In this document: piece by piece, positions 15,296 through 43,200 of the stretch
Layout of the letters: each line of letters begins with the position of its first letter
Numbering within the stretch: the first letter of the stretch is position 1
Source: Halichondria panicea
Taxonomy: Eukaryota > Porifera > Demospongiae > Suberitida > Halichondriidae
Length of the DNA: 64,000 nucleotides
Assembly (NCBI RefSeq): GCF_963675165.1
Contig: NC_087380.1
Location: forward strand, 5,216,071-5,280,070
Direction: 5' to 3'
Notes under the pieces: generated by a model
The model's input: only the letters and a program-made list of their open reading frames with translations
What the model was told of the DNA's origin: nothing
Databases searched by the model: none
Made by a program: the position numbers and the translations under genes

Positions 15296-17185
15296 TTATG
15301 AGGAAGTCCATTGAAAACGAAATAGTGATCTTACATCTTCCACTTGGTCAAGATATTGCATTTGCCTTAAATACATTTGTCTTGATGTTCGAACAGACTT
15401 CACTGATCCACATATTCCTTTCGCATCTAGCAGTGGCTGTGATTGTTGTCCAGGCATATATTCACATATCACATAACACTCACAGAGATGACGAAAATTA
15501 CTCAGTTCAGAGTTAACAAAATGATCAGCAAATGTCATACTCAGGCACAGGTGTGTCAGAGATCGAGATTGAGAGAGGGCTTTAAAAACTTCTGACTGAG
15601 CAGTGATTTTTAACTCTAAAGGTCTAACACAATAGATGTACATTTTTTTCAAAGAAGAGTAACACTCTGGGTCCGTGGGTAAAGACAATCGCGGTAAGCT
15701 ATCCTGTGATCTAATGGCCATATAAGTGAGAGACGGTAGATTTGGTAGGATATTGGTAAGATCGACTGTTCCGTTTGAGTTGGTTAGGATTCTTAAGTGC
15801 TGCACCCGTACCAGAGCTGGCAAAAGCATTTCAAAATCAAGCGGAAGGGGTTTGTAAACATTACGACTCCGACTATAGTCAATTTTAAGTGAAAACAAAT
15901 TCATCCGTACTACACTAAGGTGAATACGAGAACGACTTTGCACGTCAAACGGGGGTAAGTGGGACACACGTTCACCGATAGTACTTGGAGGTGTAACGCT
16001 TCTGTCAGGAACACACAAGCAATTCCTTAATGCCAAATGGCGAAGTTTCTTCATCACTGCTAGCACTTCCCAGAGAGAGGCCATACTTTCGACTTTGTGA
16101 ATACCCTTGAGATTCAGAGCAACCAATCCTGAGCAATTTGAGCTAATGTCAGCCAATCCTTGTAGATTGAGAAGGGCATTCTCACAACCACTAATATCAA
16201 AACAGACCAGATTGGGATAAGACTCAGAGAGCAACGTAAGATCAGTAGAAGATAGCTCCTTTAATCCAGCCAAACAGAGGGATTTGATACTGGGGGGTAA
16301 AAATGAGACAGTGAGGCCAGGTGAAGGGATGCCTGATTTGTACACTGTTGCACTGACAGGATCATTACTTGGAGATAGAACCAATGAATACGAGGCATGA
16401 CAAGATGAGCAAACTGATTTAGCAGGACATGTCACAATTTCGACGCTTGAATGTAACGACACCTTTAGGATTGGGTATTTATTTATCATATTTCCAGCAA
16501 CTGGCGAACAAGTGGAATAAATTGAAAGAAGAGCTGGGTGGTCACAACTTGTTAGTTGGCCAACGACAACTTCAAAGGAAATGTATGAAACACTAAACTC
16601 CAGATTTGGCGGCAAATAGTTATTCTCCCTCCAATGTTGAACAGCTAGTGGTACATAATGTGCGGCACAAATCCGAAAATTAACTGTAGACGTTTCAGTA
16701 ATGCGTACTATTTGAAGGTGCTGTATTTTGGAGGCTGCACAAACGATCTGGTTAACTTCAAGCTTTTGCCCCACCGATACATTGACATAGTACAGAGACG
16801 GCAGTGCAGAGAGCAGTTTTTCCAGCATTGAGAGCGTTATAGGCATGCCAATCAGTGAGAGATATCGGACTTGTTTACAGCTGTGGATTTTGGGGATAAA
16901 CTTAGAAAGAGGAAATTTTAGCGAGTTAGGATTATACGATACGTAAATATTTTGAATATAGGAACAAGACAGTCCCAACGATAGCCTGAGAGCCTTGAAG
17001 TCTTCATCTCTTCTGCGGCAGTCTTTCCACACCAGGGAGTTCCAGGCACGAGGGTCGCTGAGGATGGAATAGAACCTCTTGCAGGAGATACGGAGACACA
17101 GTTTCTATTAACCAGTCAGAGTGTCAGTTATCTTGATCAGTACCTCTGTGGGGAGACTGAGCAGGTCTTGATCTTGAGGTTCCAT
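15296..17185 (-). pseudogene. F-box/LRR protein, copy A, two nonsense codons in the F-box
   Basis: The frame has the length of a complete gene (630 codons from ATG at 17185) and matches the intact paralogue at 40181-42037 almost throughout. After the start and LLSLPTEVLIKITDTLTG, codons 26 and 27 are TAA and TAG (17110-17105), where the paralogue has TAT and GAG. The remaining 578 codons are open, including the leucine-rich repeats. If translated from an internal Met it would lack the F-box and could not bind SKP1. The long open remainder means the stops are recent, or an N-terminally truncated LRR protein is still made. An AATAAA signal on this strand lies near 15160-15185. Confidence 0.88.
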
Positions 17186-17943: not shown

Positions 17944-20900
17944 ATAGATGTAAGAAGGGAGAGGGATGGGAAACGCTACGTAAATAGCATTGACGATCCG
18001 CGTTTCGGTCAATGTTTTCTTCTTTATTTCCTCCAACCCATGCTTTTAGCTAGTACTAGGCTATAAACTAGCTACTGAGCTCCATGTATTAGCAATGGCT
18101 AGTGGAACAGTCACAACAAGGTAGCAGCAATAGTTAGTGAGACCCTCCAAGCAGTAAAAAGCAGCTTGGACAGCAAATTCTTGAGAGGAGCTCTGTCTGT
18201 ACCGTTGAGTATTCCAGTACAGTCACAGACATGATAGAGAATTATGGAAATGTAGCAAAGTTCTGTCGTAAATTACTGTGCCGATACGATGAACCAACTA
18301 TCAATGAATACAAAGAGACATTTACCTACATTCAATCATTGATGTATCTTTCTAAATGGGTACACAAAAAGTCTGCTTTTAAAAACCAGCTTACTAAGAC
18401 ATCAACTCTTATTGACCTCGTTCTTATGTCATCTCCAAGAACTCTAAAGTACTGTGAAACGGTGCCTCCACTAGCCAACTCTGATCATCTTGGCATCAGT
18501 CTACAAGTGAAAGTTCGTGCAAACTCTCACACTCGTACGCACACAAACAAAGTATGGAGATATGATTATGCTGACTTTGACAAAGCAAGATATATGTTGG
18601 CTACATTTGATCTTACCAGCTTCATACACCCAAGTTCTGTTGAGTCATCCTGGAAAGAGTGGAAGAATGTATTCATGACTACTATGAGAAATTGTATTCC
18701 CACAGCAGAAATCGCAACCCGAAAGAATCTTCCTTGGCTAACGAAAAATATAATAAGAGATATCAAAAAGAGAAACTATTACTACAGACTTGCCAGAAAA
18801 TACAACGAACCCTCTGATTTTGCAACCTACAAACAGATCAGAAATAAGGTTGTGACCACTCTCAGACGGAGTAAACAAGATTTCTTTAGCACCCTCAAGC
18901 CTCAGTCAAAAAAATTTTGGACAGCTCTGAAATACCTGAGAAAATCAGATAGCTCTATCCCATGTCTTGTAGTAAATGGCTGCAAAATCGAACAGGATGA
19001 AGAAAAGGCCCAGGTCCTTAACAAACAGTTTTATGCAAATTTCAACCATTCACTTCCTCCTCTTGACCCAAATTCCTTTAAACAACCAACAAGAGACTTA
19101 CCTGAGAACTTACGCTGCACAGAAGATGAAGTATTCAACCTGTTATCAAATCTAGACACCACAAAAGCAAATGGTCCTGATGGAATCTCCGCCAAAATGC
19201 TAAAGGCTACTGCTGAAACGATCACCCCAAGTATAACAATGCTTTTCAATATATCGATAAAAAACTGTGAACTGCCATACGACTGGAAATTGGCTCATGT
19301 CACTCCAATACCCAAATCAAACGACAAGTCTGATCCCTTAAACTATCGCCCTATATCGCTACTCTCCATCCTTGTAAAGCTCCTGGAAAAACATATGTAT
19401 AGTAAAATCTTAGAACAGCTAAAAGATATATCTTTCCTCTCGAATAAACAATGGGGTTTCACTAAAGGAAAATCCACCACAGGTGCGCTGCTTACGGCAG
19501 TGCACAATTGGCACAAACTGCTTGAAGATGGTCAGAGTGTATGTGCAGTCTTTTTTGATTTCAAAAAAGCATTTGACAAGGTTCCTCACTCGATATTGAT
19601 GAGTAAGCTAACCAATCTGAACCTAGATCCCCACCTGGTATCTTGGGTAGCAAGCTACCTCAGGAATAGATCACAATATGTCATAATAAATGGAAAGTCA
19701 TCAAATATCTCGGAGGTTGTGTCAGGAGTTCCCCAGGGTTCGGTGCTGGGACCTCTTCTTTTCCTAATCTATATAAATGACATCGATCTACATCAAAATG
19801 AAGGAAGTCTCTTGCTCTATGCTGATGATCTTCTTCTTTACCATCCTATTCAATCTCCTGAAGATTATATAAAATTGCAAGGAGATATTGATCAACTCCA
19901 AGCATGGTCTGAAAGAAATGTACTCTTGTTTAACCAAAGCAAGTGTAAATACATGACTATATCAAGAAAATTCAGCCCACCACTTCCCAACATGTGTCTC
20001 AATATCAGTGGACGTCCCCTACTTAAAGTTGACCACTACAAGTACCTTGGCGTGTGGATCTCTCACGACCTCTCATGGTCAAAACACATAGAAGAAATGT
20101 GCAGAAATGCCTGCAAGCAGGTTGGTATAATTTACCGACAGTTCTATGGCCACTCGTCACTAGAATGTTTAAGACAACTCTACATCTCCCTTGTGAGATC
20201 AAAACTGGAATATGCTGCCCCTGTTTGGGATCCACACCAAAAAACAAATTCTCACAAAATAGAAAAAGTACAAAAGTTTGCCCTTAAAATCTGCACAAAA
20301 CTTTGGAATATGGACTACGACTCCCTATTAGATACTGTGGACCTACCGTCCCTTTCTACAAGAAGATTGTACCTGAAGCTATCATACCTTTACCAGGTAA
20401 TAAATGGTAACTTTAAATTCCCTGATCCACCACTGGAAAGAAGAGTATGCCCTCTCAATCTAAGAAGCACAAAAAATATACAGTTTGAAAGACCAATTTG
20501 CAGAACAAATGCATATGCGAACTCTTTTTTCCCAAAGGCAATATCTGTGTGGAATGAATTACCACTGGAGCTGCAGGAAAGTACATCGATTTTGTCATTT
20601 AAGAGAAATGTACTCTGTCACTTGCATTAGTATAATATTAGTCTTTATTTTTAATTTGTACTCGCTATTGTAAGTAATATATACAGGGCGCACATTAGGT
20701 TAGCGTAATATGCTACTAGTGTATCCATGCATTTTGCAGAATTATTATAAAATAAAAAAAAAAAAAAAAATAAAAAAAAAAGACAAAAATGAACATTACT
20801 TACCAACCTAAAGCCAAGTGGCTTTGATTTTACAATGCCCATGCAGCTACTTAAGAAAGAAGGAATCATTAATATTTTGGGCTGTAGTCACAGCCTCTCC

Positions 20901-26556: not shown

Positions 26557-29500
26557 CTCCAAGACTCACACTTTCAAACCTAGTGTCTGCTCTGAAAAGT
26601 GTTGAAAACAGATGGAATGATTTGGGTGCTGATCTGCGATTCCCTGAAGCAGTATTGCAAAGTATCGAGAAGCAGAATTGCTCCTCACTAGAGAGATTAA
26701 CAGCTGTTCTCAAGCATTTTCTCCAACTACATCCATTTGCTTCTTGGCGAAGGATCATTCGAGCTCTTGAAAGGCTGGAAGAGAATGGGATAGTTAAGCA
26801 CATTAAAACTTATTCTGAGCACATTTTAGGTGAGTAAATTCCTTTAATATAAATCATACTCACACAACAGTTAACGGTTGTTTTTCACTACAGACCCAAG
26901 TCTTACTGTTGAGAATGTTGCTAGAGTGATTGCAGCTACCACTGATGATTGGGCAGATGATGTATATACTTATCATCTGGCAGGAGAGCTTATGGTGCCA
27001 ATCACTATACAAGATAGAATTAAGAAACAGTACTCCTCTGTTAAAGATCAACAAACTTCTCTAGCCAAGTACTGGGTGAGAATGCTTTTCAATGCTTCAT
27101 GGTCTACTCTAGCTGGAGCATTGCATTTCCTGAAGGAAAAGGAAGCTCTTGCCATTTGTGTGAAGGATTACCTTGACATTGAGAATGGTTTGTGATGTAT
27201 GTGTTGTCACGCTATTAAATCTCTCGTGTGTACAAGAGAGGCATCAACGATTTTAATGCATGAGAACTGTATATGACGGAATGTGTTTATTCCTGCAGAT
27301 GAAACCCTAACAATGGAAAATTTACTAGCCGCGTTTGAGGGTGTGACAAAATGGGATGAAATTGGATATCGGCTAAGGGTACCTACAACCCAACAGAATG
27401 AGATTAGATCATCTTTTCAAACAGACGATGAGAAAAAAGAAGCTATTTTAAATCATTTTCTTCAACACAACCCATCTCCCACCTGGAGAGAAGCTGCATT
27501 AGCTTTGTATAGAATGAGGCACCATGATTTAGTCAAGACCCTATACGAGAAGAAATATCTTATTGGTATGCTTGCACTTTACACTAGATATAATTATATA
27601 TACATTGGGTCAAAAAAATGCACAGTCTATAAATTTATTTATTGCAGCACCGGAGGATCAAAGGCTACTGGACATATTCAATTATACAGTGAAGCAAAGA
27701 GGATACTTAAATCAGACTATAATGCAAGCAACGATACAAGGAAATGCCCGGTCTGGAAAGACGTCGTTAATCAAGGTTCTACAGGGGAAACATGCTTGCC
27801 CTGTTGAACCAAGTACTGCTGTAATGGAAGAATCAGCGCGTATAGAGCTAAGCCAGTCTACTGTGCTTGTTGAAGGTATTCTCTGGACTCCAATCGAAGA
27901 TTTGCATGAAGAAGCTAATCTTGTTGTGCGTGAGGTGATGACTGCTGAGCAGCTTCAATCGAATAATGCCAATGAAGATGACGAAGACAATATTATCATT
28001 GCAGACACTATTGGAGAATCAGTTTATCCTGGAGCAGTAACTTCTATGGTTGACTCAGAATTACCCACTAGGAATACAACCAGGTATATATATATATATA
28101 CTTATTGATTAGCTCCTTAATTGTCTGTATGGGATAACTATAGCACAAAATAATATTACTAGCAGTCAGAGTGGCACAGAGAGCCTTGCAGCTCTCTTCT
28201 CACTCTTAAAGCTACCAATAGCTAGCGTTCTAGTGCCGGCAGAGCTAACTACTAAGTAGAGTAGCAACACTCCATGGACAAGTTTTGCTATATGCACTCT
28301 TCTGAAAAGGCTGCAATTGCATTCCAAGTATGCAAAACTAGGCATAACTCGAAAACGAAGTATTATTTTGCAAATCCATGAATTAACAAGAAAACATTAC
28401 TATATAGAAGCCTATAGAAACTCTTACATGCAGTTTATTGATCTCTAAGCAGCTGTAGCTATCTACAGAGACACAAACACACTACCGAATACCTCGCTTG
28501 CGCATGCGCACCGAGCCATAAGTGTGTGTCTGTGTAGACTGCAACAGCTGCTCAAGGATGAATCAAGTGCAAGTAAGAGTTTCTATAGGCTTCTAGTCAT
28601 GTTCTCTTGGATTTTAATTCGTGGATTTGCAAAATAATGCTTCGTTCTCGAGTTATGCCTAGTTTTGCTTACTTGGAATGCCATTGCAGCCTTTCAGAAG
28701 AGCACGTAGCCAAACTTGTTTACCGAGTGTTACTACTCTACTTAGTAGTTAGCTCTGCACTAGAACGCTAGCTATTGGTAGCTGCAAGAGTGAGAAGAGA
28801 GCTGCAAGGCTCTGCTGATGGCAGCCATTAATTCTAGGTGTCTTTAGTTATCATCCAGAACGCTTTGGAAAAAGAGGCTGACATTCTGTTTTAGTTTAAA
28901 TCTGGATCTGAGCCTGGGGCTGCTGTTATATAATGGGTGGTTGCTCTTCGGAGTATAAAGAGTATACTGTTTTCATGCAAACTCATGTATAGTATTAAGG
29001 ACGATCCTTTTTCATCATTTTAGCACTATCAAAACCTTCAACAGTAGTCTCTTCACTGAAACATTTGAGCAAGGTCAAGATAATTCTTCAATATTGAATT
29101 TATTCAAACTTTCCATTAAGAAAGCAAAACTCGAAATGACAATGATTAAGGACCCATGGACTCTATACATTTCAGATATAGGTGGCCAGCTTGAATTCCA
29201 AGAACTGGTGCCAGCACTAACAAATGGCCCTAGCCTTCATATTATAGTCATTGCTGCTCACTGGGGTCTCAACAATAAGTGTCCAATTGAGTACTTACAC
29301 AAAAATGGACAGTCTGCCGTATCATATAAAGCAAACTATACGGTAAAAGAAAATGTTCTGTTAACTCTGGCAACGATAATGTCTACAGGACAACATAAGC
29401 AACTTCCTAAAGCAATGTTTGTCATTACGTTTAAAGATTTGGTTACTGTAGAGGAACTACTTGTAATGGATGAAGAGCTACAAAGAACTGTGAAATGCAC

Positions 29501-32500
29501 TGAAGCATACCGCTCTGGAGTGATTGAGTTTGCCACAGAATCACACTTGTGTCATACCATTAATAATTTAATTCCAGATACAGATGACATTGCATGTATC
29601 CGTAAAACTGTGGAAAGAATAGGAATGCGAAATGATGATTACCAAGTTCGAACTCCCTACACTTGGCTTTGCTTTAGTCTTGCTCTACGCCGTATAAAGA
29701 ATAGAGTGCTGCACTATTCAACTTGTGTGGAAGCTGGAAAACAATGTGGGATTGAATCGATTGAAGAATTGAATGCTGCACTGAGATTCCTGCATTACAA
29801 CATTGGTGTAATTCGGTACTTTAGTGATGTTCCTGAATTATCAGACATTGTTATAAAAGATCCCCAGATGTTGTTTGACTGTGTTACAGAATTGGTTCTC
29901 AATACTTTCACTTTTGATCGTGTTAATTATTCTACTAAAGAAGATTTCGAGAAGAAAGGATTGTTTCCAGTTGAAATGGTTAGCAAAGTGTCTACCAATT
30001 CAGAGCTTTTTACAAACCAAAAATTGATCGCTTTTCTGATGTACCATCACATAATTGCACCATTGGAGGAAGATGGTGAAACCGTAAAATATTTTTTGCC
30101 TTGCTCTCTTGTTCATGCTGAAATTTTTGAAAATGATGCTTCCTTTAATGTACTCCCTCCAATGGTGATCATTTTTGATACTGGGTACACTCCACGCGGC
30201 ATTTTTGGATTTTTAGTGAGTGATATTCTAACTGACAAGGGTCATGAGATACAAATCGTGTTGGATGTAGATTGTATTTATCGTGACCAGCTAACAGTGT
30301 CTGTAGGTCCTTACGTAGACAAATTTTACTTCTCCCTCCATGCAACGTATATAAAGATTGATGTGCAGCCTTCGAAAATCGAACGAAAATTTCCCTTTGG
30401 AGAAATTTGCTGCTATGTTCGGAATCGTGTGGTTGAAGCATTGACTGACATTGTTAGCAAGTTGAATTACAATTGTAAAGCCACTCACTCTTTAGCATTC
30501 CTCTGTCCTGACAAATGCCATGGAGAACAAGTTCATGCAGCAACCATATTGTTTTATCGGGGGGAGATGCAGGCTTTAAAGTGTATCATTAGCAAGAATG
30601 CAAAGGCACTCCCAAAAGGTCATGAAGTGTGGTTCAATGAGGTACATTTTCAGTTTAGTAAGCATTCTATGGTTTTGCATTGTATACACCGTATTACTAG
30701 AATATTTTGCTGGTGAAAAACCTTTGCGAATGAGCTAAGTCAGCAGAAAAGTTGACCCTTTTGTGATCTAACTATTGCGTTCTGGCAAGGATCATGTGTA
30801 TTTACTAGTACAAAATAGGTTTTGCGGATTTTAATGTTGCGAATTGATCAACGATCGTAAAGTTTACAAAATGTTTGATGCTCGCAAAACATTCTAGTAA
30901 TACCGTAGAGTTTGTTGCACACACATTATTGAAGATAATGATAATTGAGAATCATAAAATAGTACTAAGTGTATTGTTCTACAGGATGTGTGTATTTCTA
31001 CGAGTAGAAAAAGACCAGCTTCAGAAGTTGCTTTACGTAAGTTGTATTTATATGGGCTATATATAGTACACTCTGATCTAATGTGTATACTTTCTTCTAG
31101 CATGCTCCAAACGTGTTGAATATGACTACTCGGAATTACATTTATCTTCAACCAAGTACTGGGTGAGCTGTTTAACAATTCAACTATTATTAATGATTTT
31201 TTGTCTTGCTACAGGACGGCCACAAAAGTACCTCAGGTATACCATTACTATAATTTTAATTTTCGAAACCACATGCATATAGAGCAGCAGTTGCTCTATA
31301 TGATTATGCATGCATGGTTCTGAGCATGTTCCTCACCTCAAAATGTGGTGTGCTAGTATGTATACTTGCACTATGTCGACGTCTGAAGCACTTTATATGG
31401 CTTTAGAATGACTTTTCCTATCATTATAGATCTAGGTCAAATTTGGTATTTGGAAACTGCGTGTGTAGCTGCTTATCCCTCCGTCTTCTCCTTCTCTACG
31501 TAATTATGTTATTATACTATAGCTAGTATGAAGCAAGATTGTTCTCTCAGATTGTCTGACAGTTAGTCAGCTGCCTTTATTACGGGTCTGCATTTGGAGA
31601 GCCAGAGTGGAGTGGGAAAACATAGGTACTGCTCTACACATCGATTCATCTATATTGAAAGCAATTGGATTGAGGAACCATTACAAACCTGAGGAATGCT
31701 TCACTGAGGTCCTCTACTACTGGCTATGTCAGGAGCCTCCACCTACCTTGAACGTCCTTAAGAAGTGTATGATGTCACTTTCTCTGAGAGAAAGTTGTCC
31801 TCGACTGGATGAAGATTTGGAGAGAAATTTTAATCAGGTTTGTGTTACTTATGCAATTAACACTATACGTTTTCAGTATATATTTATCCTTCAGTTTGAG
31901 CTTTCATGCCCAGACACTTCTGCGATGGATGAAAGTGAGTTCTTGTTTACATTACACTTACTTAATGTCACTAGACCTCTAATAAAAAGTTTACTTTTCC
32001 AATTGAGTACTGTTTGGAGTGGTGGAGGTCACACCACCGTAGCTCACTTGCCTTTGTTGCTTCCTTTGCCTGTGATAAAAAAAAACTAAGTACAATAGAG
32101 TCTAACTTCACGTGTTCATAATTTACCTCATGCCCGTCTGGAGTGGTGGGAGGAAGTGGGTTATGACCGTCTGGAGTGGTGGGGGTTGAGGTGGACGGTG
32201 TGGTGTTTTCTGTGGAATTGAATCATTGTTAAATGAATGGCGCAAGCACCTGTGGTGTAAAATACCTCGGTGCAAGTGGTCAAGTCTGCTCGTGAGACTG
32301 AGATGCCTCCTTGTTTACACTCAACGACCATGTGCTATCCTTTGTACTGTCTAAAATAAGGGAGTGATAAATGCCAAGAGTATCGTTTACTGCCTTAAAA
32401 TCGACCAAAAAGCATAATTCCCTACGTAACACTGTCAAACCTGTTTGTACAAGCCAGCAAGAGTACATTAATGTACTCCTGGTACTAGAATGGAAGCAAG

Positions 32501-33884
32501 TTAACGCGGCGTGGAATTGAGGCTACTTGCATAATTCAAACAAAAACTGGTGAGTATCACCAATATTTTCAAGGGGCTCATAACTAAGAAGCCATACGAC
32601 ACATGGGTTGTATATGCCAAGTTTCGTTGAAATCGGAGGGGGTGCTCATTTTTTTGTGTTGAGTTGACATGGAATATGTCCCAGTATTTTTGTGTCGATC
32701 ATGTGACCTATAGCCAATGACATTTATCATATGCAGTCGTGTGACTGTACTGCAAAATTTAAGGAATATACCCAATATGCCATGATAGATTTGGAAGCCT
32801 GCTGAAGCTACATGCCTTCTCCCGCCTTTTGGCGTAACTATGACAGAAGCACTCATTTTTTACTGCGGATGCGCACATTGTCAGATATGTGGTAAAAATT
32901 TTCTTCGTGAGAAAAGTCAAGTCTGAGAGATCATCTTACTTAGGCTACCGGTGCTTAGTGTAAATCTAGGAGCACATCTTGCTGAAAATAACGTTGAGTA
33001 GACAGGGTACAGCTAGGTAAAATCAATCATCTACGAATAGCGGACTCCTATTTATACTTTCCCATTATTATTACTAGAACTTTTGCGAGCATTAAACATA
33101 TGCGAATTTTGCGAGCGTTGATCGCTTCGCAAAATAGAATCGCAACGGTAATTTGTATGACATCACAATCCTTGCCAAAATGCAAAGGTTAGATCGCAAA
33201 GTGTTCAAATTTTCTGCTGCATTCGCAAAGGTTTTTCACGTGCAAAACATTCTAGGCCAGTGATCCAACTTGCTAAAAAAACAAAAGTAACTAACAGCTC
33301 TTTCTTTTTAACCCTTTTCTAACCCAACCTTACCTCTATGTTATACAACGGCATGCATATGCAAACGTTTTGCAATCCCATATCACACATGCAGACGTAA
33401 GAAGACTGTAGAATTCAGCTGTGATCCTTCCCTGCTTAGTAATAACTGCAAAAGGGCTAAAAAGTGTGCTGCTACCAATCCTAGTGTGAACAGTTTATGC
33501 ACGAGCAGATATCTTTAATTTTACCACATTAATTTCACCACAACATAGCAACCATACCATTTTATTAACTGTCGTCTTTGTTCATTTCCAGCGTTTCAAC
33601 TTGCACCTAGCCATCTGAAAATCATCGTCAATACTGTTTGGAGGGCCAGAGTAAAATGGTTTGACATCGGCATTTTTTTGCTGAATGATGTACCCGCCTT
33701 GGAATGTATCCGGACTAAGTGCCATCATGACCCAGACGAATGTTTAAGAGAAATGTTCAGCTGCTGGTTGCGTGGGGGTTGTGCAAATCTTCGAGACCTC
33801 AAGAATAGTGTGCAATCACTGCCTGTGCGGGAGAATTATCCTGGTCTCGGAAGAGATTTGGAAAATGCTCTGCTGAAACAGTAA
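26557..33884 (+). CDS. Multi-death-domain Roc-COR GTPase (5' end missing)
   Basis: Eleven exons with matching splice phases: 26557-26829, 26894-27187, 27299-27565, 27648-28083, 29024-30641, 30985-31036, 31101-31162, 31215-31236, 31551-31837, 31895-31934, 33592-33884 (TAA). They encode about 1,213 residues. The first three exons are phase 1-1 units, each one death-like domain (WNDLGADLRFPE, WADDVYTYHLAG, WDEIGYRLRVPT cores). Exon 4 has the P-loop GNARSGKTSLIKVLQG (about 27740) and a candidate switch Thr in PSTAVMEE. Exon 5 has the G3 motif DIGGQLEF (29175), a G4-like TFKD, and a COR-like region (ALRFLHYNIGVIRYF, then DPQMLFD). The last exons carry two more death-like domains (VEWENIGTALHI, VKWFDIGIFLLN). 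Roc-COR proteins bind GTP and act as dimerising switches; death folds recruit signalling partners, so an intracellular innate-immune or cell-death role is inferred. The first exon was not found. Confidence 0.82.
28178..28829. mobile_element. Foldback element in an intron of the death/Roc gene
   Basis: GAGCCTTGCAGCTCTCTTCT at the left faces AGAAGAGAGCTGCAAGGCTC at the right. The arms continue through ACTACTAAGTAGAGTAG and GCCTATAGAAACTCTTAC. It fills most of the intron between 28083 and 29024. A second, one-armed copy lies at 38764-38980. Confidence 0.85.
30697..30897. mobile_element. MITE with CTAGAATATTTTGC...GCAAAACATTCTAG ends
   Basis: 201 bp, starting 56 bp after the donor at 30641. Its ends CTAGAATATTTTGC and GCAAAACATTCTAG are flanked by TTA/TAA. 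Related copies: 33074-33255 in the last intron of the same gene, and diverged pieces at 26280-26410 and 49325-49420. Confidence 0.8.
33074..33255. mobile_element. MITE with CTAGAACTTTTGC...GCAAAACATTCTAG ends
   Basis: 182 bp, same family as 30697-30897 but in the opposite orientation (AAAAACCTTTGCGAATG appears inverted at its right end). It lies in the intron before the last death-like exon. Confidence 0.78.
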
Positions 33885-40180: not shown

Positions 40181-42037
40181 TTAACGAAATAGTGATTGTA
40201 CATCTTCCACTTGGTCAAGATATTGCATTTGCCTTAAATACATTTGTCGAACAGACTTCACTGATCCACATATTCCTTTCGCATCTAGCAGTGGCTGTGA
40301 TTTTTGTCTAGGCATATCAATACATATCACATAACACTCACAGAGATGACGAAAATTACTCAATTCAGAGTTAACAAAATGATCAGCATCTGTCATACTC
40401 AGGCACAGGTGTGTCAGAGATCGAGATTGAGAGAGTGCTTTAAAAACTTCTGACTGAGCAGTGAATTCTAAGCAAGGTATAACACAATAGATACAAATTT
40501 TTTTCAAAGAAGAGTAACACTCTGGGTCCGTGGGTAAAGTCAATTGCGGTAAACTACTCTGTGATCTAATGGCCATATAAGTGAGAGACGGTAGATTTGG
40601 TAGGATATTGGTAAGATCGAGTGTTCCGCTTGAGTTGGTTAGGATTCTTAAGTGCTGCACCCATACCAGAGCTGGCAAAAGCATTTCAAAATCAAGCGGA
40701 AGGGGTTTGTAAACATTCCAACTATAGTCAATTTCAAGTGAAAACAAATTCATCCGTACTACACTAAGGTGAATACGAGAACAACTTTGCACGTCAAACA
40801 GGGGTAAGTGGGACACACGTTCACCGATAGTACTTGGAGGTGTAACAGTACTTCTGTCAGGAACACACAAAAAATTCCTTAATGCCAAATGGCGAAGTTT
40901 CTTCATAACTGCTAGCACTTCCCAGAGAGAGGCCACACTTTCAACTTTGTCAATACCTTTGAGATTCAGAGCAACCAATCCTGAGCAATTTGAGCTAATG
41001 TCAGCTAATCCTTGCAAATTGAGAAGAGCATTCTCACAACCACTCATATCAAAACAGATCAGGTTGGGACAGGACTCAGAGAGCAATGTAAGATCAGTAG
41101 AAGATAGCTCCTTTAATCCAGCCAAAGAGAGGGATTTGATGCTGGGGGGTAAAAATGAGACAGTGAAGCCGGGTGAAGGGATGCCTGATTTGTACACTGT
41201 TGCACTAACAGGATCATTACTTGGAGATAGAACCAATGAACACGAGGCAGGACAAGATGAGCAAACTGATTTAGCAGGGCATGTCACAATTTTGACGCTC
41301 GGATGTAACGACACCTTTAGGATTGGGTATTTATTTATCATATTTCCAGCAACTGGCGAACAATTGGAATAAATTGAAAGAAGAGCTGGGTGGTCACAAC
41401 TTGTTAGTTGGCCAAGGACAACTTCAAAGGAAATGTATGAAACACTAAACTCCAGATTTGGCGGCAAATAGTTATTCTCCCTCCAATGTTGAACACCTAG
41501 TGGTACATTATGTGCGGTACGATCCTGAAAATTAACTGTAGACGTTTCAGTAATGCGTACTATTTGAAGGTGCTGTATTTTGGAGGCTGCACAAACGATC
41601 TGGTTAACTTCAAGCTTTTGCCCCACTGATACATTGACGTAGTACAGAGACGGCAGTGCAGAGAGCAGTTTTTCCAGCATTGAGAGCGTTATAGGCATGC
41701 CAATCAGTGAGAGATATCGGACTTGTTTACAGCTGTGGATTTTGGGGATAAACTTAGAAAGAGGAAATTTTAGCGAGTTAGGATTATACGATACGTAAAT
41801 ATTTTGAACATAGGAACAAGACAGTCCCAACGATAGCCTGAGAGCCTTGAAGTCTTCATCTCTTCTGCGGCAGTCTTTCCACACCAGGGAGTTCCAGGCA
41901 CGAGGGTCACTGAGGATGAAATAGAATCTCTTGCAGGAGATACGGAGACACAGTTTCTCATAGCCAGTCAGAGTGTCAGTTATCTTGATCAGTACCTCTG
42001 TGGGGAGACTGAGCAGGTTTTGATTTTGAGGTTCCAT
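40181..42037 (-). CDS. F-box/leucine-rich-repeat protein (FBXL type), intact copy B
   Basis: A single-exon gene of 618 residues starting at ATG 42037. Residues about 7-52 form an F-box (LLSLPTEVLIKITDTLTGYE, then CLRISCKRFYFILSDPRAW), the SKP1-binding part of SCF ubiquitin ligases. The remainder holds irregular leucine-rich repeats, e.g. VRYLSLIGMPITLSML, IKSLSLAGLKELSSTDLTLL and LVALNLKGIDKVESV, that would bind the substrate. The substrate cannot be told from sequence. An AATAAA on this strand lies near 39970. It is divergent from CWC27; the Tc1-like element sits 70 bp upstream of its ATG and separates the two genes. The paralogue at 15296-17185 is about the same length but has two stops in the F-box. 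Confidence 0.92.
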   Translation of the reverse strand: MEPQNQNLLSLPTEVLIKITDTLTGYEKLCLRISCKRFYFILSDPRAWNSLVWKDCRRRDEDFKALRLSLGLSCSYVQNIYVSYNPNSLKFPLSKFIPKIHSCKQVRYLSLIGMPITLSMLEKLLSALPSLYYVNVSVGQKLEVNQIVCAASKIQHLQIVRITETSTVNFQDRTAHNVPLGVQHWRENNYLPPNLEFSVSYISFEVVLGQLTSCDHPALLSIYSNCSPVAGNMINKYPILKVSLHPSVKIVTCPAKSVCSSCPASCSLVLSPSNDPVSATVYKSGIPSPGFTVSFLPPSIKSLSLAGLKELSSTDLTLLSESCPNLICFDMSGCENALLNLQGLADISSNCSGLVALNLKGIDKVESVASLWEVLAVMKKLRHLALRNFLCVPDRSTVTPPSTIGERVSHLPLFDVQSCSRIHLSVVRMNLFSLEIDYSWNVYKPLPLDFEMLLPALVWVQHLRILTNSSGTLDLTNILPNLPSLTYMAIRSQSSLPQLTLPTDPECYSSLKKICIYCVIPCLEFTAQSEVFKALSQSRSLTHLCLSMTDADHFVNSELSNFRHLCECYVICIDMPRQKSQPLLDAKGICGSVKSVRQMYLRQMQYLDQVEDVQSLFR

Positions 42038-42213
42038 GATCAGCCTTTAGTGTCGATCTGCGTTATTTTAGAGACAAATCGGTCCGGAACAAAAAGTGTG
42101 TATTTGTACAGTGGATTTCAGTTGCGTTCGAATTTGCGTTGACGTACGGACTTCCGTGTTGCGCTTACAAGAGGAAAACCGCGGGAAATTCAAATGTAAT
42201 ACTACAGATCAAA

Positions 42214-43200
42214 ATGTCAGCTGAACCGGGAAGAAAGAAAGCCTATGGCATAGATCTACGCTGGAGAGTAGTCTATCAAAGAATTGGTATGAATCTTACC
42301 TATGACAAGATAGCTACTAACTTAAATATTGCAGCAAGCACAGCATACAGTATATTTACGAGGTTTCAGCAAACAGGAAAAGTAGACCCTGTACTGAGCG
42401 AACAAAGGAGAGAGCTGAGAAAGCTAAGTGTACATGAAGAAATATATACAGTTGGGATGGTGCTCGAGGATCCATCCATGTATCTCTCTGAGGTGTGCCA
42501 CGAATTGGAGGAAGCAATGGGGGTTGTGGTGACTCCCCCAACTATTTGTCGGCTACTTAGAAGATATGGGATCACTCGAAAGAAGATTCAACAAGTAGCT
42601 CTCCAAAGGTGCTATACACTCCGTGGAGCATTTATGGCTCAGTGTTTACTATTTAATCCAGACCAGTTTGTATTTATTGATGAAACGGGTTCAGATGCCA
42701 GAGATCATATCAGAAAGTATGGATATGCAATAAGAGGATTGGCACCACAGAATAAACGCCTGTTGAGTCGTGGGCAAAGAGTTAATGCTATTGCTGGCAT
42801 GAGCACTGATGGTGTAGTAGCTGTTGAAGTTACTAAGTCTAATGTTGATGCGGAAGTGTTCTTTGACTATGCAAGACGATCCCTCATACCAAACATGCTA
42901 CCATTCAACGGATCTAATCCTTGTTCAATTGTTATAATGGACAATTTGTCTGTGCACCACACTCAAGATATCACACATCTATTCAGACAAATGGGCATAC
43001 TTTTACTATTTCTTCCACCGTATAGTCCTGATCTCAATCCGGCAGAAGAAATGTTTAGTTTTGTAAAAAACTACTTAAGGAAACACGATAACCTACTGCA
43101 AATTGTCACCAACCCAACTGATATAATACACTCAGCTTTTGATAGTATCACCAGTGAACATTGTACTGCTTGGGTTCGACACAGCGGTTACTCAAAATAA
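42214..43200 (+). CDS. Tc1/IS630-family DDE transposase (DD34E)
   Basis: 328 residues from ATG 42214; the frame stays open upstream to 42139 but without an ATG and inside the terminal repeat. The N-terminus is a helix-turn-helix pair (LRWRVVYQRIG, then ATNLNIAASTAYSIFTRFQQ; second HTH around TPPTICRLLRRYGITRKK). The catalytic DDE_3 domain shows D in FIDETGSD, D in IVIMDNLSVHH and E in PYSPDLNPAEEMF, with 34 residues between the last two. It excises and inserts the element at TA. No stop or frameshift is present, so activity is possible. Confidence 0.95.
   Translation: MSAEPGRKKAYGIDLRWRVVYQRIGMNLTYDKIATNLNIAASTAYSIFTRFQQTGKVDPVLSEQRRELRKLSVHEEIYTVGMVLEDPSMYLSEVCHELEEAMGVVVTPPTICRLLRRYGITRKKIQQVALQRCYTLRGAFMAQCLLFNPDQFVFIDETGSDARDHIRKYGYAIRGLAPQNKRLLSRGQRVNAIAGMSTDGVVAVEVTKSNVDAEVFFDYARRSLIPNMLPFNGSNPCSIVIMDNLSVHHTQDITHLFRQMGILLLFLPPYSPDLNPAEEMFSFVKNYLRKHDNLLQIVTNPTDIIHSAFDSITSEHCTAWVRHSGYSK

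What the first reader, a model, noticed from the sequence alone, without database searches (positions are those of the whole stretch)
26557..33884. Death x3 - Roc - COR - death x2 gene: candidate intracellular immune switch
Eleven exons connect in phase to give at least 1.2k residues with five death-like domains around one Roc-COR GTPase. Known metazoan Roc-COR proteins (LRRK, DAPK1, MFHAS1) have at most one death domain. The phase 1-1 exons make the death module freely duplicable, a pattern seen in expanding receptor repertoires. The usual kinase, LRR or ankyrin parts are absent from what is visible.
Basis: partly seen in the sequence, partly recalled or inferred. Interest (0 to 1): 0.8.

Follow-up and report, generated by a model that had tools for sequence, protein, structure and literature searches.

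The report
Death-domain-flanked Roc-COR GTPase gene
This looks like a real animal gene whose protein puts a Roc-COR GTPase switch between three and two death domains, one of dozens of related loci in its genome, and it may be a GTP-controlled scaffold for cell-death or immune signalling.

Summary
Eleven exons at 26557-33884 join in phase to 1,213 residues and a stop; the start exon was not found. Death domains: exon A passes Pfam, C is sub-threshold, B, I and K come by homology and profile; models of I and B resemble death domains (Z 11.6, 9.0). Roc-COR: P-loop, DxGGQ, TxxD, and a family profile matching LRRK2 (1.7e-8, mostly COR). One gene: the order recurs in two paralogues (41-47% identical in exon E) with three N-terminal and one C-terminal death exons, and in a near-identical copy 124 kb away with coding constraint. 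"Immune switch" is plausible but untested; with no sensor or effector recognised, I favour a GTP-gated death-domain scaffold. Precedents: DAPK1 (Roc-COR-death), Trichoplax Roc-COR proteins with CARD and death domains, a sea-anemone kinase/Roc-COR/death/TIR protein. New variant of a known kind.

The parts
26557..26829 (+). Exon A: death domain 1 (phase 1-1)
   Evidence: Pfam Death E 4.2e-9, over cut-off; homologous exon first in order in L002 and L003
26894..27187 (+). Exon B: death domain 2, divergent (phase 1-1)
   Evidence: No Pfam hit alone; 45% identical exon in the same place in L002; AF2 model pLDDT 86.9, five helices, two of five models at 63.0 and 56.5; VIA Z 9.0 to ankyrin-B death domain, rmsd 2.5 over 73
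27299..27565 (+). Exon C: death domain 3 (phase 1-1)
   Evidence: Pfam Death E 0.0027, below cut-off; 29 of 87 identities with exon A
27648..28083 (+). Exon D: 5' part of Roc with P-loop
   Evidence: 50% and 42% identical stretches in L002 and L003; GxxxxGKT kept in window, L002, L003
27740..27763 (+). P-loop (G1) GNARSGKT, residues 309-316 of the partial protein
29024..30641 (+). Exon E: 3' part of Roc, COR and C-terminal Cys/Trp tail
   Evidence: family profile of 28 members matches LRRK2 Roc and COR in order, E 1.7e-8, most of the score from COR
29175..29189 (+). G3 / switch II motif DIGGQ (residues 474-478)
   Evidence: D-x-G-G-Q in all 51 aligned members, window included
29427..29438 (+). 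G4-like motif TFKD (residues 558-561)
   Evidence: T and D in all 51 aligned members, window included
29655..30071 (+). COR-A match
   Evidence: Pfam COR-A E 5.6e-8, 33.2 bits, just below the 35.3 cut-off; 35.9 bits, over cut-off, in the genome search
30495..30641 (+). Conserved tail of about 49 residues with two Cys and one Trp (FLCP...C...W), no Pfam name
   Evidence: C917, C943, W959 in 94, 92 and 90% of 51 members; no Pfam match there
30985..31036 (+). Exon F, linker (weakly supported)
   Evidence: splice sites and frame; no convincing counterpart in L002/L003
31101..31162 (+). Exon G, linker (weakly supported)
   Evidence: as exon F
31215..31236 (+). Exon H, linker (weakly supported)
   Evidence: as exon F
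31551..31837 (+). Exon I: death domain 4 (phase 1-0)
   Evidence: no Pfam hit alone; AF2 helix bundle pLDDT 90.5; VIA Z 11.6 to FADD death domain, rmsd 2.4 over 89; its L002 homologue passes Pfam Death (Death E 1.3e-5 for 1 of 4 members)
31895..31934 (+). Exon J, linker (phase 0-1, weakly supported)
   Evidence: no convincing counterpart
33592..33884 (+). Exon K: death domain 5 and stop codon
   Evidence: 34 of 96 identities with exon I; no Pfam hit alone; not modelled; kept in the second copy with 3 differences in 293 bases
28177..28817 (.). About 640-base foldback (MITE-like) element in intron D-E; not coding
   Evidence: same stretch matches the second copy on both strands

Best explanation
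One protein-coding gene for a probably cytosolic Roco-family GTPase in which Roc-COR is flanked by death domains: DD-DD-DD-Roc-COR-(tail)-DD-DD. Proposed mechanism: the Roc-COR unit binds and slowly hydrolyses GTP while changing between monomer and dimer or oligomer (inferred from other Roco proteins); that change exposes or aligns the death domains, which seed or bridge death-domain assemblies with adaptor or effector proteins. With no sensor repeat, kinase, protease or TIR part in the recognised exons, it most likely acts as a GTP-gated scaffold or relay between other death-domain proteins rather than as a stand-alone receptor. The two sub-kinds of death domain (A/B/C and I/K) suggest two different partners. 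Shown: gene structure, domain identity, kept GTPase motifs, coding constraint, membership in a large family. Inferred: location, nucleotide-gated oligomerisation, scaffold role, and cell-death or immune context.
For: Exon chain and frame. Same exon order in L002 and L003; candidate splice sites there allow the same phases where found. Near-identical copy intact: 16 of 3,644 coding bases differ against 86 of 7,843 other aligned bases in four BLAST blocks, Fisher p 3.6e-4, dN/dS 0.22. Death domains by sequence, profile and model. Roc-COR by profile to LRRK2, with P-loop, DxGGQ, TxxD. Expanded family: 83 loci by one query, 82 of 83 without a stop in the matched stretch, DxGGQ and TxxD in all 51 aligned. 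Scored Pfam Death within 6 kb on the same strand in 13 of 83 loci, on the opposite strand in 0 of 83; 500 circular shifts gave a mean of 0.7 and at most 8. Roco proteins and nucleotide-dependent dimerisation: PMC6337361 (passages), PMC4104024 (a proposed model; passages). AP-GTPases as switches in bacterial and animal conflict systems: PMC8195603 (passages).
Against: No transcript, no start exon, no biochemical data. 70 of 83 loci show no scored Pfam Death in reach, though only 150 of 503 Death candidates were scored. Pfam Roc is below cut-off for this protein (15.6 against 27 bits); the G1-G3 stretch is 165 residues, against 71 in a more classical Roc of the same genome, so nucleotide binding cannot be assumed. 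COR-A is matched at E up to 0.1 by 17 of 28 members taken singly. The exon B model has five helices, the last 28 residues long, and two of its five models were poor; Foldseek E-values were not significant (0.075 and up). No partner was tested. The near-identical copy could be an unpurged haplotype.
Confidence: 0.55

Rival explanations
1. Receptor reading: the protein is itself an intracellular immune receptor, the death domains or the long Roc insert acting as sensor, diversified by duplication.
For: Large repertoire in the genome, a recent near-identical copy, clusters of other members on C10, C13, C5, C6 and C8; a Roco expansion with LRR exon shuffling is read as candidate immune receptors in brown algae (PMC11378527, passages).
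Against: No LRR, WD, ankyrin or lectin match in the protein or the 20 flanking ORFs scanned. The window clade is small (4 loci) and its two near-identical copies show constraint, not excess change (dN/dS 0.22). No variable site was looked for in a population.
Confidence: 0.2
2. DAPK1-like housekeeping or developmental apoptosis regulator: a Roc-COR-DD core like that of DAPK1 without kinase and ankyrins, used in normal cell turnover rather than defence.
For: The order Roc-COR-DD is that of DAPK1 (PMC6337361, passages; PMC12365538, abstract in listing); a locus with COR-A, weak COR-B and Death in that order exists here (L010).
Against: Exon E aligned to L010 over only 91 residues at 25%, so no close relationship; part of a large family.
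Confidence: 0.17
3. Two or three adjacent genes, or a decaying pseudogene, read as one.
For: No start exon; the intron before K is 1.66 kb; F, G, H, J have no convincing counterpart in L002/L003.
Against: Introns A-D of 64-111 bases leave no room for gene ends; order kept in diverged paralogues; 11 of 11 exons open with splice dinucleotides in both copies; coding constraint.
Confidence: 0.08

Closest known systems
DAPK1 group of Roco proteins
   Same: Roc-COR followed by a C-terminal death domain; no LRR
   Different: No kinase or ankyrin part recognised; three death domains before Roc and two after COR instead of one (PMC6337361, passages; PMC12365538, abstract in listing)
Trichoplax ROCO repertoire (at least 17 genes)
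   Same: Early animal with many Roc-COR genes, with CARD and death domains among the neighbours
   Different: The passages read name no five-death-domain layout; the figure with the layouts was not seen (PMC4104024, passages)
Sea-anemone novel gene NG3
   Same: Roc/COR combined with a death domain in one predicted protein
   Different: Also carries kinase, SH3 and TIR (PMC5094078, passages)
MFHAS1 and LRRK1/2
   Same: Roc-COR core; family profile aligns to LRRK2
   Different: No LRR or kinase recognised here; no death domain there (PMC6337361, passages; absence in LRRK recalled)
NLR / STAND receptors with death domains (NLRD of sponges)
   Same: NTPase switch joined to death domains, expanded family (PMC12909245, passages); at least 102 NACHT matches in this genome
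   Different: Roc-COR GTPase in place of NACHT; no LRR sensor recognised

Membership tests
Roco (ROC-COR) family | Roc GTPase with P-loop, G3 and G4 motifs | tested here: met
   GNARSGKT, DIGGQ, TFKD; LRRK2 Roc aligned at G3 and G4 with low per-stretch scores (7.7 and 1.8 bits). Pfam Roc itself is below cut-off
Roco (ROC-COR) family | COR domain directly after Roc | tested here: met
   COR-A 33.2 bits against a cut-off of 35.3 in the scan, 35.9 and over cut-off in the genome search; LRRK2 COR stretch 22.7 bits in the family profile. Winged-helix fold not modelled
Roco (ROC-COR) family | GTP binding and nucleotide-dependent dimerisation | not testable with these tools
   needs protein
Roco group 1 or 2 (LRR, LRR plus kinase) | N-terminal LRR; C-terminal kinase in group 2 | tested here: not met
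   no LRR or kinase match in the 1,213 residues or in 20 chosen flanking ORFs; a missing 5' exon is not excluded
Roco group 3 (DAPK1) | kinase N-terminal to Roc-COR | tested here: not met
   a missing 5' exon is not excluded
Roco group 3 (DAPK1) | death domain C-terminal to COR | tested here: met
   exons I and K
Death-domain superfamily | sequence homology to death domains in each of five exons | tested here: met
   A over the Pfam cut-off, C below it; B, I, K by homologous exons and clade profiles; I's L002 homologue passes Pfam; profile hits to ankyrin, RIPK1, FADD for A/B/C (1.4e-4), for I/K only E 0.1
Death-domain superfamily | six-helix death fold | tested here: inconclusive
   modelled for two of five exons: I well (pLDDT 90.5, Z 11.6), B with five helices and a long last one (pLDDT 86.9, Z 9.0). 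A, C and K were not modelled. Z below about 13 can mean only a common arrangement in helical bundles (tool's note)
NLR / STAND NTPases | NACHT or NB-ARC NTPase | tested here: not met
   no such Pfam match in the protein at E up to 1
Expanded immune receptor family | microbe-responsive or highly variable between individuals | not testable with these tools
   no expression or population data

The most novel reading that the evidence does not exclude
Beside its NLRs this animal runs a second large intracellular NTPase-switch repertoire built on Roc-COR GTPases with death domains on one or both sides (83 loci by one query, against 47 genes in the largest brown-alga set read about), with a Roc that is about 90-140 residues longer between G1 and G3 than a classical one; the window clade is its sensor-less hub, linking two separate death-domain partner networks in a GTP-dependent way.
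Probability: 0.3. Interest if true: 0.78.

Novelty: new variant of a known kind. Interest (0 to 1): 0.52.

Why it matters
Roc-COR proteins are best known through Parkinson's LRRK2 and the kinase DAPK1. A genome with scores of Roc-COR loci, several beside death domains, would let one test whether Roc-COR served early animals as a death-domain assembly switch, parallel to NACHT in NLRs. No kinase was matched in the 25 of 59 same-strand ORFs scanned in seven more distant members. The layout with five death domains, in two near-identical copies, and with four in two diverged ones, is a clean system to ask whether GTP state controls death-domain polymerisation.

Tried and rejected
Start exon: ORFs upstream of exon A in L002 were compared with L003 (the window comparison in that script failed on a bad option), then 200 window upstream ORFs with L002/L003: best E 0.017 against 0.033 for a reversed control, so nothing convincing. 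Ten upstream and ten downstream plus-strand ORFs scanned with Pfam: nothing over cut-off; not all ORFs were scanned, and short exons could be missed.

Extent of the duplication by whole-genome DNA search: swamped by repeats; it did not even list the known copy. BLAST of the fetched copy shows homology from window about 24.2 kb to 35.6 kb, which is as far as the fetched DNA goes. Second gene or unpurged haplotype: undecided.

So 'winged-helix COR' was tested by profile only.

Species: not identified. The many NACHT and Death matches and the style of repeats suggest a sponge; that is recalled resemblance, not a test. No annotated animal proteome could be searched, so I cannot say how widespread the layout is.

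Literature: ten searches of an open-access library listed no paper that I recognised as reporting this layout; most subscription papers are missing, figures were not seen, and papers were read as passages only. In the passages seen, the amphioxus (PMC2575513), RIPK (PMC9573974, PMC11507063) and Mytilus (PMC3308963) papers showed no death-Roc-COR case. Rejected: NLR (no NACHT), LRRK or MFHAS1 orthologue (no LRR or kinase), DAPK1 orthologue (poor similarity to L010).

Dropped rows: L010 and L014 were left out of the 51-row alignment and tree for low similarity. The P-loop was seen in 9 of 53 records, the others mostly being exon pieces that need not reach it; this was not checked one by one. Alignment A1 holds the window and 27 of the 48 trimmed references. 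The tree is midpoint-rooted and its support values were not printed. The 83 loci leave out 17 of the 100 rows, second pieces of the same loci; some of the 83 may be haplotype copies. L015, fetched, gave no exon-E match and was not studied. Against a wide link: the I/K profile does not list the L010 death domain.
Full report
What is there. Eleven exons between 26557 and 33884 join in phase to 1,213 residues ending in TAA. The first three introns are 64, 111 and 82 bases long, too short to hold the end of one gene and the start of another. Exons A, B and C are phase 1-1; D is 1-2; E is 2-0; I is 1-0 with the small exon J 0-1; K runs from phase 1 to the stop. The start exon is missing: exon A holds no in-frame ATG and nothing upstream is convincingly conserved between paralogues. 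The four small exons F, G, H, J rest on splice motifs and frame alone.

Death domains. Exon A passes the Pfam Death cut-off (E 4.2e-9), C falls short (0.0027), and B, I and K give no hit alone. Homologous exons in two paralogues help: a profile of A/B/C exons finds exon I at E 0.014 but does not list K, a profile of I/K-type exons finds A at 0.0022 but does not list the window's B, and the profile-profile comparison gives probability 92. Reversed window ORFs reach 0.25 at best over three profiles (427 ORFs). Against solved structures the A/B/C profile hits ankyrin-2 (1.4e-4), RIPK1 and FADD death domains; the I/K profile lists FADD first, but at a non-significant 0.1. AlphaFold models made only from the window's own five exons: exon I pLDDT 90.5; exon B 86.9, but with five helices, the last 28 residues long, and two of its five models at 63.0 and 56.5. 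Aligned to Foldseek's matches, exon I has Z 11.6 to FADD (2.4 A over 89) and exon B Z 9.0 to ankyrin-B (2.5 A over 73). The tool warns that helical bundles can reach about 13 by arrangement alone, and the Foldseek E-values were not significant (0.075 and up). What persuades is that the leading rows are death domains in all six of these lists. A/B/C and I/K are two sub-kinds: I and K share 34 of 96 residues, A and C 29 of 87. K, A and C were not modelled.

Roc-COR. The protein has a P-loop GNARSGKT, a G3 motif DIGGQ and a G4-like TFKD. In 51 aligned members, window included, D-x-G-G-Q and T-x-x-D are invariant. A profile of 28 members matches LRRK2 from Roc through COR in order, E 1.7e-8, with 22.7 bits from COR and 7.7 and 1.8 from the two Roc stretches. 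COR-A of the window gene is 33.2 bits in the Pfam scan, just below its cut-off of 35.3, and 35.9 in the genome search; 17 of 28 members match COR-A singly at E up to 0.1. The distance from G1 to G3 is 165 residues here and 163-211 in seven other members, against 71 in a more classical Roc-COR gene (L014) of the same genome; the D-E intron falls inside this stretch. Insertions within Roc are also described in brown algae (PMC11378527, passages). After COR comes a tail of about 49 residues with two Cys and one Trp kept in 90-94% of 51 members, for which Pfam gave no name.

One gene. Two diverged paralogues, at C8:4.14 Mb (L002) and C11:4.57 Mb (L003), show the same order of three death exons, Roc exon, COR exon and one C-terminal death exon, with 47% and 41% identity over exon E. 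Candidate splice sites in L002 allow the phases 1-1-1-1-2-0 (its B and C donors were not located); L003 agrees at the sites read. A near-identical copy lies 124 kb upstream on the same contig, 98.5-98.7% identical in the two long blocks and 95-96% in two others. In it all 11 exons are open with their splice dinucleotides; 16 of 3,644 coding bases differ, against 86 of 7,843 other aligned bases (Fisher p 3.6e-4), with dN/dS 0.22. That is constraint on these exons, though with few changes. I cannot tell whether the copy is a second gene or an unpurged haplotype.

Place in the genome. The 521-residue query from exon E matches 83 separate loci (100 rows, 17 of them second pieces; 83 of 343 candidates scored, so a lower bound). 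The window gene, its copy, L002 and L003 form one clade in a tree of 51 (support values not printed). Scored Pfam Death matches lie within 6 kb on the same strand of 13 of the 83, on the opposite strand of none; 500 circular shifts give a mean of 0.7 and at most 8. Seven more distant members were fetched with longer flanks. Three have a same-strand Death match over the Pfam cut-off (L004, L005, L009), one below it (L006), three by in-house profile only (L007, L008, L016); gene joins were not tested. In L009 Death, a weak Roc match and the exon-E region share one open frame. The genome also has at least 102 NACHT matches.

How it most likely works. Roco proteins are described as changing between monomer and dimer with nucleotide state (PMC6337361, passages), and Roc-COR has been proposed as a nucleotide-dependent dimerisation device (PMC4104024, passages). 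Death domains act by homotypic assembly (established knowledge). The simplest reading is a GTP-gated death-domain scaffold: a change of nucleotide state brings copies together and lines up their death domains, which seed or bridge assemblies. Because no sensor, kinase, protease or TIR part was matched in the exons or in 20 flanking ORFs, I place it as a relay or hub rather than a receptor; the unknown 5' exon could change that. The death or immune context is inferred from domain company and from the view of AP-GTPases as switches in conflict systems (PMC8195603, passages). I give the scaffold reading 0.55, the receptor reading 0.20, a DAPK1-like housekeeping role 0.17, and a false join or pseudogene 0.08.

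What is known. The review PMC6337361 sorts Roco proteins into three groups; only the DAPK1 group is marked by a death domain. The window gene fits none of the three as far as it is visible. But diversity beyond these groups is in print: at least 17 Trichoplax genes with CARD, death, TPR and LRR neighbours (PMC4104024), a sea-anemone kinase/Roc-COR/death/TIR protein (PMC5094078), molluscan TIR and COR proteins with Death among the labels of a figure legend (PMC9334734), all read as passages. Brown algae, said to have more ROCO genes than other organisms reported, reach 47 (PMC11378527, passages); the 83 loci here are DNA matches, not annotated genes, so the comparison is rough. Ten literature searches listed no five-death-domain Roc-COR protein that I recognised. 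Hence: new variant of a known kind, with the size of the repertoire and the two-sided death domains as the notable parts.

Noticed in passing
L004:4248-4703, L006:39-740, L007:5612-6040 (minus strand): Immunoglobulin-type ORFs lie upstream of the Roc-COR exon in three other family members, with Death upstream in L004: possible Death-Ig-Roc-COR proteins, which recall MALT1's Death-Ig layout (recalled). Hydrophobic stretches were listed; gene joins not tested.
   Followed up: partly
L014:918-6155 (C1:3.01 Mb, minus strand): A 1,380-residue open frame with Roc and two COR-A stretches, next to an ORF with a weak CARD-like and a strong Death match (E 1.9e-16): a different, more classical Roc-COR-Death locus.
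   Followed up: no
L010 (C7:582501-588500): Locus with COR-A, weak COR-B and Death in DAPK1 order.
   Followed up: no
window 28177-28817: About 640-base self-complementary element in the D-E intron; the second copy differs in length here.
   Followed up: no
window 15299-17104 (minus) and 40184-42046 (minus): Two similar-looking long ORFs flank the gene, one with an F-box; both have sub-cut-off LRR matches.
   Followed up: no
window 18141-20627 and 42040-43197: Reverse transcriptase ORF and DDE endonuclease ORF: mobile elements on either side of the gene.
   Followed up: no
G000 C7, C13, C14: NACHT matches lie in dense clusters, suggesting tandem NLR expansion in the same genome.
   Followed up: no
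window 30985-31236: The predicted linker between COR and the C-terminal death domains reads RKRPASEVALPCSKR, a basic pair that could be a localisation or phosphorylation signal; weakly supported exons.
   Followed up: no
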